DNA of 64,000 nucleotides from the NCBI GenBank assembly GCA_026545225.1, contig CM048847.1, positions 620,001 through 684,000 on the forward strand, read 5' to 3'. The stretch is from Cornus controversa (taxonomy: Eukaryota; Streptophyta; Magnoliopsida; Cornales; Cornaceae). The notes below the pieces were generated by a model that made no database searches, was not told the DNA's origin, and was given only the letters and a program-made list of their open reading frames with translations. Shown one piece after another: positions 1 to 5,197 of the stretch; position 1 is the stretch's first letter; the number at the start of each line of letters is the position of its first letter. Position numbers and translations under genes: made by a program.

Positions 1-640
1 AAGCCCAATCAACATCCTATCATCCTAGAACCCCTCAAACATGATTAAGAACATAAATGGAAGGTTCCAACATCAATCAAACTCTCAAGATCACATCCAT
101 AATTGAATTATACATCAAAATGAATCATTTTCCTCCACAACCACACTTCATTCACAATAAAGGCATCCTCAAATGAACAAGATGCCACCATGGGCGTTAC
201 ATATATTAAACCGTTGTCTTTTCACACCCAACAAGTTTAAAATCCCATACATACATCCAAATTACATATGTCCAAAGTACAACCACAACAAAAAGGGAAG
301 TCACATGCCACAAGCCGGCATGGATAGCCACAAAAATGATCAAAACTCAAAAGATAGCAAAACCACCACTAATGTTCCACTTGGACACTCACGTGCCATC
401 CGTCATCGGCGCTTTATCTGTAAAATATTTAGAATAAAGGGGTGAGCACCACTGCGGCTCAGTAAAGGTTCCCCAACCCTTCTAAGTGCCGACCCGACAC
501 GACCTACATGGAATGCATATGAATACACTACATGCCACGTCCACAATCTCACAAACACATCAATAATAGCAATTTAAGAGGATTGCACATATCACGAATC
601 ATGTATAACATGTTCAAACATAAAAGCATTAAGGAAGTGA
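1..640. other. Left 640 bases: no gene recognised, presumed interior of the LTR-like flank
   Basis: This is AT-rich, low-complexity-leaning sequence. The only open frames are short (about 90 residues at 173-445, and about 70-90 residues overlapping on both strands from about 532 to 818), without recognisable domains and with biased, unstructured composition. They look like chance frames. The stretch around 430-520 is richer in G and C and resembles the interior of long plant LTRs, but nothing here can be assigned a function. Confidence 0.4.
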
Positions 641-677
641 GTAAATGCTCTCTCTCTCGGTCCTTATCCGATACCCT

Positions 678-1001
678 ACATGATTGGTCCGCTCCGAGGA
701 TCATGTCACCTTGGACACCTCCGATAACCATCCAATGACCGGGACAACTCCGAAAGGTCATTCTACCATAGCAATATATGGGATTGCCATAGAGTGAGGG
801 GGCAACTCCGAGGCTCACAAGTCATGGACATCCTCCGATAATCATCTTATGACCGGGACAACTCCGAAAGGTCATTAGTATTGGACATACTCCGATCCTA
901 GGCATTAAGCCTTAGTATGGCGGGTCCACTCCGAGGGCCATACATAGTGGATAATTTTACCACCTTTCACAACACGGTTGGACTACTCCGAAGCCCCGTG
1001 T
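678..1001 (-). repeat. Array of short hairpins with a shared CTCCGA loop
   Basis: At least six clear stem-loops follow one another. ACATGAT/ATCATGT is at 678-684/700-706. TTGGA/TCCAA is at 711-715/731-735. AATGACC/GGTCATT is at 734-740/756-762. GTGAG/CTCAC is at 794-798/814-818. ATGACC/GGTCAT is at 849-854/870-875. GTATGGC/GCCATAC is at 915-921/937-943. A further one, ACACGG/CCGTGT, is at 972-977/996-1001 with an 18-nt loop, and a weaker one with an imperfect stem spans about 822-850. In the first six the loop is exactly 15 nt and always contains CTCCGA. The stems differ between hairpins yet stay complementary within each, so structure rather than stem sequence has been kept. The strand given is the presumed sense strand of the LTR; hairpins form equally on either strand. 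Confidence 0.75.
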
Positions 1002-1021
1002 ACCTCTTTTGCGTCATTTTT

Positions 1022-1400
1022 CCCGCAACTTCCCACATATGCAATATGAATGCATAAACACATGATATTTTGTTTTCATGCTCAACTCATGCTCATTGAT
1101 ACTAAAAGGAAGTAATAAGCATATTTTCCATCACCACATACCACATATAGCACATATATGTAAAACACATGCATATATCATCTCATATGCATACAACTTC
1201 AAAATTAGCATATTTTACTCATGCTACATTCAATGCATAATTTTAGCACATAGAACTAAACATGCATTCAACAACCACATTCCCACATATAATCACATAT
1301 ATGACACTTGGTACACATTTTTCCACATATACACCAAATTGAGCACATAATACCTATGTATCAATTTCTTACACTCACATACTTCAAACCCACATGCTAC
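1022..1400. other. AT-rich CACATA/GCATA-rich stretch without a gene
   Basis: This is a degenerate alternation of CACATA, CATAT and GCATA words with scattered A and T runs. There is no fixed period long enough to call a microsatellite. The one open frame here (1078-1350 on the plus strand, 90 residues) is rich in His, Ile and Tyr because of the CATA repeats and is considered spurious. It lies within the presumed LTR. Confidence 0.5.
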
Positions 1401-1800
1401 CACCAACACAATATACACAATTGTGAAAAGATAGGACTCTAGAGGAGAAGAAAACACAACTTTCTACACCTCTCACCATCCTAAAGCATGTGAAACACAA
1501 CCTACACCTCTCTTCTTCACCCGAAACCCTAGAATCGACAATTAGAAGAGAAGAAGAACCCCTACCTCAAAAATGAAGGCCTTCCAAGCACTTCACCAAT
1601 TTTCCAGCAGAGTCTACCTTGCCGAATCACCACTTTGTTCGGTTCAAATGGAAGCCCTAGCCGTCCCCTACGTATCTCCCTCCTTCGGCAAGTCTTGAAT
1701 CCAAGCCGAACGGGTCCGAAATGTAGAGAGAAGGGAGAGCTTTGAAGATGAAGAGCTTTAGAGAGAGAAAGAGGCGTGAGATATGGCTGAACACCTCTGC
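1400..1800 (-). other. CT-rich leader-like stretch downstream of a TATA-like site
   Basis: On the minus strand the sequence after the TATA-like palindrome is rich in CT runs (CTCTTTCTCTCTCT and similar, about 1790-1740) and continues with a purine/pyrimidine-biased tract to about 1400. Such CT-rich sequence is typical of plant transcript leaders, including the R/U5 part of LTRs. A 92-residue minus-strand frame (1562-1840) crosses the stretch but starts upstream of any plausible transcription start and has no recognisable domain, so I do not call it a gene. Confidence 0.35.
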
Positions 1801-1804
1801 CACT

Positions 1805-1819
1805 GATATTTAAAATATC
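1805..1819 (-). promoter_or_regulatory. TATA-like palindrome, candidate LTR core promoter
   Basis: The 15-base palindrome GATATTTAAAATATC (7-bp arms around one central base) contains a TATTTTAAATA core on the minus strand. It is followed in the minus direction by CT-rich leader-like sequence and preceded by about 375 bases ending at the TG terminus, which is a sensible U3 length. Promoter function is inferred from position and composition only. Confidence 0.35.
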
Positions 1820-2189
1820 TAGGGTTTGCAAAAAGACCAAAATACCCCCGGGCCACTTAACGTACCTTCCCGGACTCCTTTTTCGATTCCGAAAACTCCT
1901 ACAGTCTCGAAATCACTTCCTCTACTCTCTAAACATTTCATCTCAGCCATTCTCAAAAATAAATATTTCTAAGAATTTTCCGGATTCCCAGGCCCACTTA
2001 AGTCACATCCCGGGCCTCGGTTTGACCAAAAAGTCAAACTTCTCCAATTCTCCCGAAAACTTCCCAAAACCTTAAAAACACTTCCCAAACATGTTCCCCA
2101 CACTCGAAACATGCTAATCACCACTCAAAATGCATTTATGGCAATTATAATGCGAAAAATGCAAAACCGGCCAAAATTGGTCACGGTCT

Positions 2190-2199
2190 CTACAAAAGG
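2190..2199. other. Junction between LTR-like flank and satellite, with a candidate 5-bp target site
   Basis: Sequence up to 2194 (...CTCTACA) is flank. From 2195 (AAAGGAAACAATTAGC) it follows the satellite, matching for example 2930-2945, where the preceding bases are ACATCT rather than CTCTACA. The break falls inside the tail of module E, not at a module boundary. If the flank is an LTR, AAAGG (2195-2199) would be the target-site duplication, and the other end of the element should be preceded by ACATCTAAAGG. Confidence 0.6.
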
Positions 2200-2987
2200 A
2201 AACAATTAGCAAGCTACCAACCATTTTAAACTTGTTTCATTTGAGTTGTTTTGATTCAAAAACCGCATTCCAAGAGAAGTCGTGCCATAATACTAATCGT
2301 ACGCTGCTTTTTTCAAAATGAAACCATCAAAGGGTCCCAAAGAAACGACGAGCATGTCGATCCGATATTCATCCATGTTTGTTTGAGTTGTTCTGTGTCA
2401 AAAGAACAATTGCTTGCTATAATCAGGCATGACGACAACCGTATGGTGCTTTGTGCTAGAATTGACCATCTGGATGTCTAGAAGAGTAGAGAATGACAAC
2501 AACGGTTTTGAACTTGTTTCGTTTGACCTGTCCTGATTCGAAAAGTCCAATCCACGTGAAATCGTGCCATACATAGAATTATACGTTGCTTTATGCCTAA
2601 TTCGACCGTGAGGACGTCCTGAATCGAAAAGAGTAATTTCTTGCTGCACCCATGAATGATCACAACCGTATGGTGCTCTATGCCAACTTCAACCATCTGG
2701 ACAAGTAAAAGAAACAATTCCCAAGCTATCGATGATTTCAAACAAGTTTAGTTTGAGTTGTTCTGATTCAAAAACCCATTCCTTGAGAAGTCGTGCCATA
2801 ATCAGAATCGTAAGTTTCTTTTTTCCAAATTAGACCATCAAAGCATCCAAAAGAAGTGACGAACATGTCAATCCGATCTTCATCACAACCGTATGGTGCT
2901 TTGTTCCAAATTCGACCGTTTGGACATCTAAAGGAAACAATTAGCAAGCTACCAACCATTTTAAACTTGTTTCATTTGAGTTGTTTT
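2195..2987 (+). repeat. Edge of array: tail fragment plus first complete monomer
   Basis: Bases 2195-2252 are the end of a module E cut by the flank junction, and 2253-2987 is a 735-bp monomer. This first monomer carries TGTGTCAAAAG at the start of module B (where most copies have TGAGTCGAAAG) and GAAGAGTAG at its end. The same TGTGTCAAAAG variant occurs deep in the array near 15650, 23010, 45090, 49505, 56130 and 60545. The edge monomer is therefore not especially diverged, which argues that the array was interrupted here rather than decaying at a natural edge. Confidence 0.8.
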
Positions 2988-3129
2988 GATTCAAAAACCG
3001 CATTCCAAGAGAAGTCGTGCCATAATACTAATCGTACGCTGCTTTTTGCAAAATGAAACCATCAAAGGGTCCCAAAGAAACGACGAGCATGTCGATCCGA
3101 TATTCATCCATGTTTGTTTGAGTTGTTCT
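2988..3129 (+). repeat. Module A of a representative monomer (142 bp)
   Basis: The module starts GATTCAAAAACC. Its 86-bp body (2988-3073) contains GTCGTGCCATAATAC, AATCGTACGCTGC, a T-run and ACCATCAAAGGGTCCC. A 56-bp tail (3074-3129) follows and ends TTTGAGTTGTTCT. The body aligns position by position with the bodies of B, C and D, all about 86 bp from the GAKTC start. Across the array module A comes in several haplotypes, recognised by GATTC or GATTA at the start and by TTTTTTC, TTTTTTTG or TTTTTTCTAAAC around the T-run. Confidence 0.85.
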
Positions 3130-3269
3130 GAGTCGAAAGAACAATTGCTTGCTATAATCAGGCATGACGACAACCGTATGGTGCTTTGTGCTAGAATTGA
3201 CCATCTGGATGTCCAGAAGAATAGAGAATGACAACAACGGTTTTGAACTTGTTTCGTTTGACCTGTCCT
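3130..3269 (+). repeat. Module B of a representative monomer (140 bp)
   Basis: The module starts GAGTCGAAAG. Its body of about 86 bp includes the strongly conserved core CAACCGTATGGTGCTTTG and GACCATCTGGATGTCC. A tail of about 54 bp ends GTTTCGTTTGACCTGTCCT, clearly related to the tails of D and E. It corresponds to module A body for body and tail for tail, but with many substitutions, so the A/B duplication is much older than the copies of the whole monomer. Confidence 0.85.
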
Positions 3270-3355
3270 GATTCGAAAAGTCCAATCCACGTGAAATCGT
3301 GCCATACATAGAATTATACGTTGCTTTATGCCTAATTCGACCGTGAGGACGTCCT
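3270..3355 (+). repeat. Module C of a representative monomer (86 bp, no tail)
   Basis: The module starts GATTCGAAAAGTCC and includes ATCGTGCCATAC, TATACGTTGCTTTATGCC and TTCGACCGTGAGGACGTCC. It consists of the 86-bp body only; the next GAATCGAAAAG start follows at once at 3356. The missing tail suggests either deletion of about 56 bp or an exchange between body ends when the composite monomer formed. The same lack is present in every monomer examined, so it predates spread of the 736-bp unit. Confidence 0.8.
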
Positions 3356-3499
3356 GAATCGAAAAGAGTAATTTCTTGCTGCACCCATGAATGATCACAA
3401 CCGTATGGTGCTCTATGCCAACTTCAACCATCTGGACAAGTAAAAGAAACAATTCCCAAGCTATCGATGATTTGAAACAAGTTTAGTTTAAGTTGTTCT
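3356..3499 (+). repeat. Module D of a representative monomer (144 bp)
   Basis: The module starts GAATCGAAAAGAG. The body contains ATGATCACAACCGTATGG, TGCTCTATGCC and ACCATCTGGACAAG, and the tail AAACAATTCCCAAGCTATC ends AAGTTGTTCT. It aligns with B over its full length. It carries an array-wide indel polymorphism in which some copies read AAACGAATTCCC instead of AAACAATTCCC. Confidence 0.85.
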
Positions 3500-3723
3500 G
3501 AGTCGAAATCCCCAGTCCTTGAGAAGTTGTGTCATAATCAGAATCGTAAGTTTCTTTTTTCCAAATTAGACCATCAAAGCATCCAAAAGAAGTGACGAAC
3601 ATGTCAATCCGATCTTCATCACAACCGTATGGTGCTTTGTTCCAAATTCGACCGTTTCGACATCTAAAGGTAACAATTTGTAAGCTACCAACCATTTTAA
3701 ACTTGTTTCATTTGAGCTGTTAT
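3500..3723 (+). repeat. Module E of a representative monomer (224 bp, fused)
   Basis: The first about 120 bp (GAGTCGAAA, GTCATAATCAG, ACCATCAAAGCATCC, GTCAATCCGATCTTCAT) follow module A, body and the first part of the tail. The sequence then switches to CACAACCGTATGGTGCT, the middle of a B/D-type body, and runs through a full tail ending GAGCTGTTAT. Module E is thus best read as a fusion of an A-type and a B/D-type unit, joined at TTCATCACAAC. Three E haplotypes alternate along the array, starting GATTCAAAAACCCATT, GAGTCGAAAACCCCAG or GATTCGAAAACCCTAG. Confidence 0.8.
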
Positions 3724-5197
3724 GATTAGAAAACCACATTCCAAGAGAAGTCGTGCCATAATACTAATCGTACGCTGTTTTTTTGTAAATGAAACCATCA
3801 AAGCGTCCCAAAGAAACGACGAGCATGTCGATCCGATCTTCATCCATATTTGTTTGAGTTGTTATGAGTCGAAAAGAACAATTCCTTGCAATAACCAGGC
3901 ATGACCACAACCGTGTGGTGCTTTGTCCTAGAATTGACCATCTGGATGTCTAGAAGAATAGAGAATGACAACAACGGTTTTGAACTTGTTTCGTTTGACC
4001 TGTCCTGATTCGAAAAGTCCAATCCACGTGAAATCGTGCCATACATAGAATTATACGTTGCATTATGCCTAATTCGACCGTGAGGACGTCCTGAATCGAA
4101 AATAGTAATTCCTTGCTGCACTCATGAATGATCACAACCGTATGGTGCTCTATGCCAACTTCAACCATCTGGAAAAGTAAAAGAAACAATTCCCAAGCTA
4201 TCGAGGATTTTAAATAAGTTTAGTTTGAGTTGTTCTGATTCAAAAACCCATTCCTTGAGAAGTCGTGCCATAATCAGAATCGTAAGTTTCTTTTTTCCAA
4301 ATTAGACCATCAAAGCATCCAAAAGAAGTGACGAACATGTCAATCCGATCTTCATCACAATCGTATGGTGCTTTGTTCCAAATTCGACCGTTTGGACATC
4401 TAAAGGAAACAATTTGTAAGCTACCAACCATTTTAAACTTGTTTCATTTGAGTTGTTTTGATTAGAAAACCACATTCCAAGAGAAGTCTTGCCATAATAT
4501 TAATCGTACACTACTTTTTTCTAAACGAAACCATCAAAGGGTCCCAAAGAAACGACGAGGATGTCGATCCGATCTTCATCCATGTTTGTTTGAGTTGTTC
4601 TGAGTCAAAAAGAACAATTCCTTGCAATAACCAGGCATGACCACAACCGTATGGCGCTTTGTGCTAGAATTGACCATCTGGATGTCCAGAAAAATAGAGA
4701 ATGACAACAATGGTTTCGAACTTGTTTCGTTTGACTTGTCCTGATTCGAAAATTCCAATCCATGTGAAATCGTGCCATACTTAGAATTATACGTTGCTTT
4801 ATGCCAAATTCAACCGTCAGGACTTCCTGAATCAAAAAGAGTAATTCCATACTGCACCCATGAGTGATCACAACCGTATGGTGCTCTATGCCAACTTCAA
4901 CCATCTGGACAAGTAAAAGAAACAATTCCCAAGCTATCGATGATTTGAAACAAGTTTAGTTTGAGTAGTTTTTTGATTCAAAAACCCATTCCTTGAGAAG
5001 TCGTGCCATAATCAGAATCGTAAGTTTCTTTTTTCCAAATTAGACCATCAAAGCATCCAAAAGAAGTGACGAACATGTCAATCCGATCTTCATCACAACC
5101 GTATGGTGCTTTATTCTAAGTTCGACCGTTTGGACATCTAAAGGAAACAATTAGCGAGCTACCAACCATTTTAAACTTGTTTCATTTGAGTTGTTTT

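What the first reader, a model, noticed from the sequence alone, without database searches (positions are those of the whole stretch)
678..1001. Chain of hairpins whose stems vary but stay paired, around a fixed 15-nt CTCCGA loop
Six hairpins have stems of different sequence (ACATGAT, TTGGA, AATGACC, GTGAG, ATGACC, GTATGGC), each perfectly complementary to its own partner, with loops of exactly 15 nt containing CTCCGA. A seventh (ACACGG) has an 18-nt loop. Stem divergence with retained pairing is the classic sign of structure under selection or of a templated hairpin-generating process. I know of no named element with this design. It could be an RNA packaging, dimerisation or translation structure in the LTR transcript, or a protein-binding array.
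Basis: partly seen in the sequence, partly recalled or inferred. Interest (0 to 1): 0.75.

Follow-up and report, generated by a model that had tools for sequence, protein, structure and literature searches.

The report
Paired-stem hairpin array in plant LTR
A stretch of what looks like a plant jumping gene's terminal repeat carries a row of small hairpins whose stems differ in sequence but still pair, around one nearly fixed core; the pattern is far beyond chance, but what it does is not known.

Summary
Region 640-1015 has seven perfect stems (5 bp or more) closing a 15-nt loop; none of 5000 dinucleotide shuffles reaches seven (mean 0.28, maximum 3). The window's nine CTCCGA copies lie at 692-991. 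At one register 5 of 9 have stems of at least 5 bp; permuted flanks match that in 5 of 20000 trials. True units: A1-A5, plus A6 with an 18-nt loop, motif spacing 56-67 bp. A2 and A4 are one duplication; the TTGGA hairpin has another register. Arms of the five independent units look related (ATGA/TCAT; 4 of 2000 random sets as close), and the four substitutions in that core are all compensated (by eye; units were picked because they pair).

The array lies in LTR-like sequence (1-2194) abutting a 736-bp-period satellite. Against structure: overall folding energy is ordinary, A1-A5 stem columns show no G-U cells, three B units lack the stem. Best reading: hairpins presenting a core to an RNA-binding protein, perhaps Gag. 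Template-switch upkeep and DNA-level sites stay open. No homologue was found, so the decisive covariation test is undone.

The parts
1..2194 (-). LTR-like sequence, at least 2194 bp, cut by the window edge; terminus TGTAGAGACC on minus at 2194. Minus as sense strand is an inference
   Evidence: Junction with intact satellite copies at 2194|2195; no satellite similarity in 1-2194; orientation by eye and weak
678..706 (.). A1 hairpin, ACATGAT stem, 15-nt loop
711..735 (.). B1 unit: CTCCGA at 719; TTGGA stem at another register, probably not the same design
734..762 (.). A2 hairpin, AATGACC stem, 15-nt loop
   Evidence: duplicate of A4
766..792 (-). H: hairpin without CTCCGA; 10 bp with two G-U pairs in minus-strand RNA
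794..818 (.). A3 hairpin, GTGAG stem, 15-nt loop
819..848 (.). B2 unit: CTCCGA at 833, shared stem absent (2-bp run; best 3 of 4 pairs at nearby registers)
849..875 (.). A4 hairpin, ATGACC stem, 15-nt loop, duplicate of A2
876..906 (.). B3 unit: CTCCGA at 890, shared stem absent
915..943 (.). A5 hairpin, GTATGGC stem, 15-nt loop
972..1001 (.). A6 hairpin, ACACGG stem, 18-nt loop
2195..64000 (+). Satellite array, 736-bp period, into which the LTR-like sequence abuts

Best explanation
The feature is a tandem array of diverged copies of one hairpin unit inside what looks like the LTR of a plant LTR retrotransposon. Shown: six A-type hairpins, motif spacing 56-67 bp, share a core (GGNCNNCTCCGA on plus; UCGGAGNNGNCC in minus-strand RNA), and their stems differ in sequence while staying paired. 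Inferred: the units work in the element's RNA, where the stem presents the core, with its GGAG element, to an RNA-binding protein. The element's own Gag is the likeliest partner, several copies together marking the genomic RNA for packaging or dimerisation. Selection would act on core sequence and stem pairing, not on stem sequence.
For: 0 of 5000 shuffles match the 15-nt-loop count. 5 of 9 motif copies have a stem of at least 5 bp at one register: binomial 8.7e-14, times 169 registers 1.5e-11, or 8.8e-9 without the duplicate; flank permutation 5 of 20000 and, on total run length, 1 of 20000. Pair counts on A1-A5: 32 of 35 cells paired (0 of 500 shuffles as high), covariation score 1.20 against 0.38 (0 of 500), pairs with double change 7 against 4.4 (10 of 500), further pair types 11 against 7.7 (24 of 500). 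The five independent arms look related (distance 4 against a random mean of 7.84, 4 of 2000), and 4 of 4 core substitutions are compensated A-T/G-C transitions (read by eye). Watson-Crick stems of 6 bp or more: 7 against 2.1 (2 of 400 shuffles). Hairpin H is unbroken only in minus-strand RNA, through two G-U pairs. Multi-hairpin packaging signals with an RGAG loop motif are described for HBV (PMC7612645, passages), and NC binds GGAG elements in the HIV-1 leader (PMC7395439, passages).
Against: The array folds no better than shuffles on the presumed sense strand (z +1.08; z -1.35 to +0.21 by span). In minus-strand RNA context the A stems form very unevenly: span 40 gives A1 0.12, A2 0.96, A3 0.63, A4 0.06, A5 0.99, A6 0.75; span 150 gives 0.00, 0.97, 0.00, 0.00, 0.79, 0.01. 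No G-U cell among the 35 of A1-A5. B1-B3 lack the stem. With G-U allowed, counts of stems of 6 bp or more are not unusual (plus 117 of 400 shuffles as high, minus 31 of 400). Short-span energies favour plus, not minus. In HIV-1, GGAG is important but not sufficient, and replacing the apical GGAG loop did not significantly affect packaging (PMC7395439). Orientation, transcript, Gag and binding are untested. Rfam: no match at E up to 1 in 1-4000.
Confidence: 0.38

Rival explanations
1. Template switching during replication or reverse transcription copies one arm onto the other and so keeps the stems perfect; structure need not be selected, only the core is, or nothing is.
For: All 32 paired cells of A1-A5 are Watson-Crick, with no one-sided change. 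If arms are aligned on ATGA, A2/A4 carry an extra pair on both sides (by eye). The mechanism is proposed in print (PMC8794818, abstract and passages).
Against: Unit geometry is constant (7 nt before and 2 nt after CTCCGA in 5 of 9), and in isolated RNA folds the inner helix is set off from the outer stem by an unequal bulge in most units, which simple self-priming from the inner helix would not give (inference). The four core substitutions are transitions.
Confidence: 0.25
2. A DNA-level regulatory array: the core, partly a dyad (GGA ... TCC), is repeated as binding sites for a plant transcription factor or chromatin protein, like tandem repeats in other LTRs.
For: CTCCGA, with a GG 4 nt upstream (5 nt in B2 and B3), is kept in all nine units with or without the outer stem. 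[quoted passage not shown] If plus is the sense strand, the array lies upstream of the plus-strand TATA-like match at 1807.
Against: Does not explain complementary outer arms that vary between units. If minus is sense, the array lies about 800-1100 bp downstream of the one minus-strand match to three TATA-like patterns (1814), not in U3.
Confidence: 0.25
3. A neutral tandem-repeat relic: one palindromic unit duplicated, with stems still intact only for lack of time.
For: A2 and A4 are clear duplicates; B units lack the stem.
Against: Arms of A1, A2, A3, A5 and A6 differ at many positions while each pairs with its own partner, and reassigned flanks seldom pair.
Confidence: 0.1

Closest known systems
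Dispersed RNA packaging signals (HBV; PMC7612645, passages)
   Same: Several stem-loops with a shared loop motif (RGAG there, GGAG in the minus-strand core here)
   Different: Here a regular tandem array with larger loops; no protein binding shown
HIV-1 packaging leader with GGAG elements (PMC7395439, passages)
   Same: GGAG near or in hairpins of an RNA leader, if minus is the sense strand here
   Different: No homology tested; here one unit is repeated six times and GGAG sits in a large loop that may hold an inner helix
Tandem repeats in LTR U3 regions (retroviruses, Tnt1; PMC3601003, passages)
   Same: Short tandem repeats inside an LTR
   Different: Complementary varying arms are not mentioned in the 12 passages seen
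Template-switch hairpins (PMC8794818, abstract and passages)
   Same: Perfect stems and simultaneous double changes
   Different: Fixed core, fixed geometry and regular spacing are not part of that process as described in the passages seen
Plant Ty3/gypsy Tekay (Del) type LTRs
   Same: Long LTR and this kind of terminus, by recall only
   Different: No coding region in the window; a hairpin array in this group was not seen in the listings of my searches

Membership tests
LTR of an LTR retrotransposon | TG...CA termini at a sharp boundary with host DNA | tested here: met
   One end only: ACA (TGT on minus) at 2194 against satellite; the other end is outside the window
LTR of an LTR retrotransposon | Target site duplication and a second LTR copy | not testable with these tools
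   Window begins inside the element
LTR of an LTR retrotransposon | Primer binding site or polypurine tract next to the LTR | tested here: inconclusive
   None of five recalled primer-site strings found exactly in 1-2194, either strand; six purine runs of 12 or more, none assignable
Tekay/Del chromovirus | Chromodomain integrase and RT phylogeny | not testable with these tools
   Coding region not in the window as far as seen; assignment recalled
Rfam family | Covariance-model match | tested here: not met
   0 matches at E up to 1 in window 1-4000
Multi-site RNA packaging signal | Shared loop motif on several hairpins with differing stems | tested here: met
   (at sequence level)
Multi-site RNA packaging signal | Hairpins form in the packaged RNA | tested here: inconclusive
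   Predicted pairing of A stems 0.00-0.99 by unit, strand and span; no probing data
Multi-site RNA packaging signal | Binding by the capsid or Gag protein | not testable with these tools
   Needs a binding assay
Template-switch hairpin | Reverse-complement copying seen against an ancestor | not testable with these tools
   No homologue found

The most novel reading that the evidence does not exclude
A plant LTR retrotransposon carries a repeated RNA recognition array, six or more hairpins with a common core and freely varying stems, that marks its own full-length RNA for Gag: a modular packaging or dimerisation signal placed in the LTR itself.
Probability: 0.2. Interest if true: 0.75.

Novelty: new variant of a known kind. 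Interest (0 to 1): 0.5.

Why it matters
How plant LTR retrotransposons select their own RNA is, as far as I recall, poorly known. A repeated hairpin unit with compensated stems would give a concrete signal to test. If instead template switching keeps the arms, this is a natural case in which covariation misleads as a sign of selection.

Tried and rejected
blastn of 1-2194 against the 133 fetched loci listed matches of 18-49 nt, best E 0.004, most of them around CTCCGA, as expected since the loci were picked by that motif; I took them as chance or coding repeats without examining each. Two LTR patterns in viral contigs found nothing. Phages and plasmids: no match at E 0.01. No whole genome is held.

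Chance: rejected. An unusually stable global fold: not found (at full span). Strand assignment: inconclusive (hairpin H favours minus; short-span energies favour plus). A leader intron holding the array was considered: acceptor-like tract at 418 on minus, but the only minus-strand donor-like sites scoring 5 or more lie at 1865, 507 and 392, none fitting, so not claimed. Rfam: none.

Papers: 10 searches ran. Judged by titles and abstract beginnings of the papers listed (in several calls only the top 8-20 of more hits), none describes this hairpin design in a plant LTR. That is no proof of absence, and most subscription papers are missing. Passages seen: PMC3601003, PMC7730604, PMC6911290, PMC7395439, PMC8794818, PMC7612645. 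None was read whole; all others were seen in listings only.

Full report
Setting. From 2195 to 64000 the window is a satellite array of 736-bp period; a query of its first 1500 bp covers 100% of it on one strand and 0% of 1-2194. Satellite copies read GACATCT|AAAGGAAAC where the window reads CTCTACA|AAAGGAAAC, so the boundary is at 2194|2195. The end (ACA on plus, TGT on minus) fits an LTR. Only one end is in the window, so the target duplication and second LTR could not be checked. No whole genome is held. The family (Tekay/Del type) is recalled from the look of the terminus, not tested, and so is the plant origin. Minus is probably the sense strand: T- and G-rich, with a pyrimidine-rich stretch after a TATA-like match at 1814. 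This is weak: plus has a TATA-like match at 1807 in the same AT-rich spot.

Observation. Perfect stems of at least 5 bp with a 15-nt loop number seven in 640-1015; 5000 shuffles give a mean of 0.28 and a maximum of 3. One of the seven overlaps A5 and is not part of the pattern, and B1 has another register. CTCCGA occurs nine times in the window, all at 692-991. With a left gap of 7 and a right gap of 2, 5 of 9 copies have stems of 5-7 bp; the other four have runs of 1, 2, 0 and 0. Permuting left flanks among the nine sites reaches five stems in 5 of 20000 trials and the total run length in 1 of 20000.

Anatomy. A units have their motif at 692, 748, 806, 862, 929 and 986, spaced 56, 58, 56, 67 and 57. 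B units (719, 833, 890) lie between A1 and A2, A3 and A4, and A4 and A5. They have the core (one base longer in B2 and B3) but not the stem; at gaps 7-9 and 2-4 their best 4-bp matches are 1, 3 and 2 of 4 pairs. Between A2 and A3 lies a hairpin without the motif (766-792). A2 and A4 are a duplication. A1-A5 align without gaps. Of 35 cells 32 pair, all Watson-Crick; all seven pairs show double changes and none a one-sided change. Sliding the partner by 1-3 columns drops pairing to 20-40%. That control favours the stated structure partly because the structure was read from these sequences, and five rows, two of them duplicates, are few.

Are the stems related? Taking four bases near the core (left gap 8 or 9), the independent units A1, A2, A3, A5 and A6 read ATGA/TCAT, ATGA/TCAT, GTGA/TCAC, ATGG/CCAT and ACGG/CCGT. 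Their summed distance to a best 4-mer is 4, against a mean of 7.84 for random letters of the same composition; 4 of 2000 random sets are as close. So the arms look like descendants of one hairpin, and the four substitutions in this core are matched by changes in the partner, all A-T to G-C type. Two cautions: the offsets were chosen after seeing the data, and the units were classed as A because they pair. B units may be copies that lost the stem. This is a test on paralogous units within one LTR, not on homologues.

Against structure. Minus folds no better than shuffles (z +1.08, 89 of 100 as low, z -1.35 at span 35, 29 of 300 as low, rising to +0.21). Plus does at short span (z -2.8, 1 of 300) but less at full span (-1.04, 49 of 300; and -0.47). 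In context A stems form with predicted probability from 0.00 to 0.99 depending on unit, strand and span. Watson-Crick stems of 6 bp or more are in excess (7 against 2.1, 2 of 400), but with G-U pairs allowed the excess fades (16 against 13.6 on plus, 30 against 23.3 on minus). G-U pairs are absent from the A1-A5 stem columns, though one extends A1 inward on plus and two occur in each of H and B1 on minus. Folded alone, A units show an inner helix within the loop.

Mechanism. Three readings survive. RNA display: variable stems hold a constant core for a protein, as HBV packaging signals do with RGAG in vitro (PMC7612645, passages) and as GGAG elements serve NC in HIV-1, where GGAG alone is not sufficient (PMC7395439, passages). 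DNA sites: the core is kept in all nine units regardless of stem. Template switching: it can make perfect stems and double changes in one step (PMC8794818, passages) and fits the lack of G-U cells. Constant geometry and transition-only core changes tilt me to selection on RNA pairing, but not strongly.

Limits. No paper listed in ten searches of an open-licence library describes this design.

Noticed in passing
2195-64000: Satellite array with 736-bp period on one strand to the window end; TRF also reports 223-224-bp two-copy units inside it.
   Followed up: partly
766-792: Hairpin lacking the motif: 10 bp with two G-U pairs and no mismatch in minus-strand RNA, where the plus strand has A-C mismatches; hints that minus-strand RNA is the structured one.
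   Followed up: partly
901-1550 and 1801-2150: With pairing span 45, 350-bp windows here fold better than 60 shuffles each on both strands (z about -2.4 to -5.2, and -3.2/-3.9). The first stretch is rich in CATATG-like words by eye.
   Followed up: no
1-2194 minus strand: Acceptor-like T-rich tracts before AG, such as TATTTTACAG at 418; a leader intron was considered but no fitting donor was found.
   Followed up: partly
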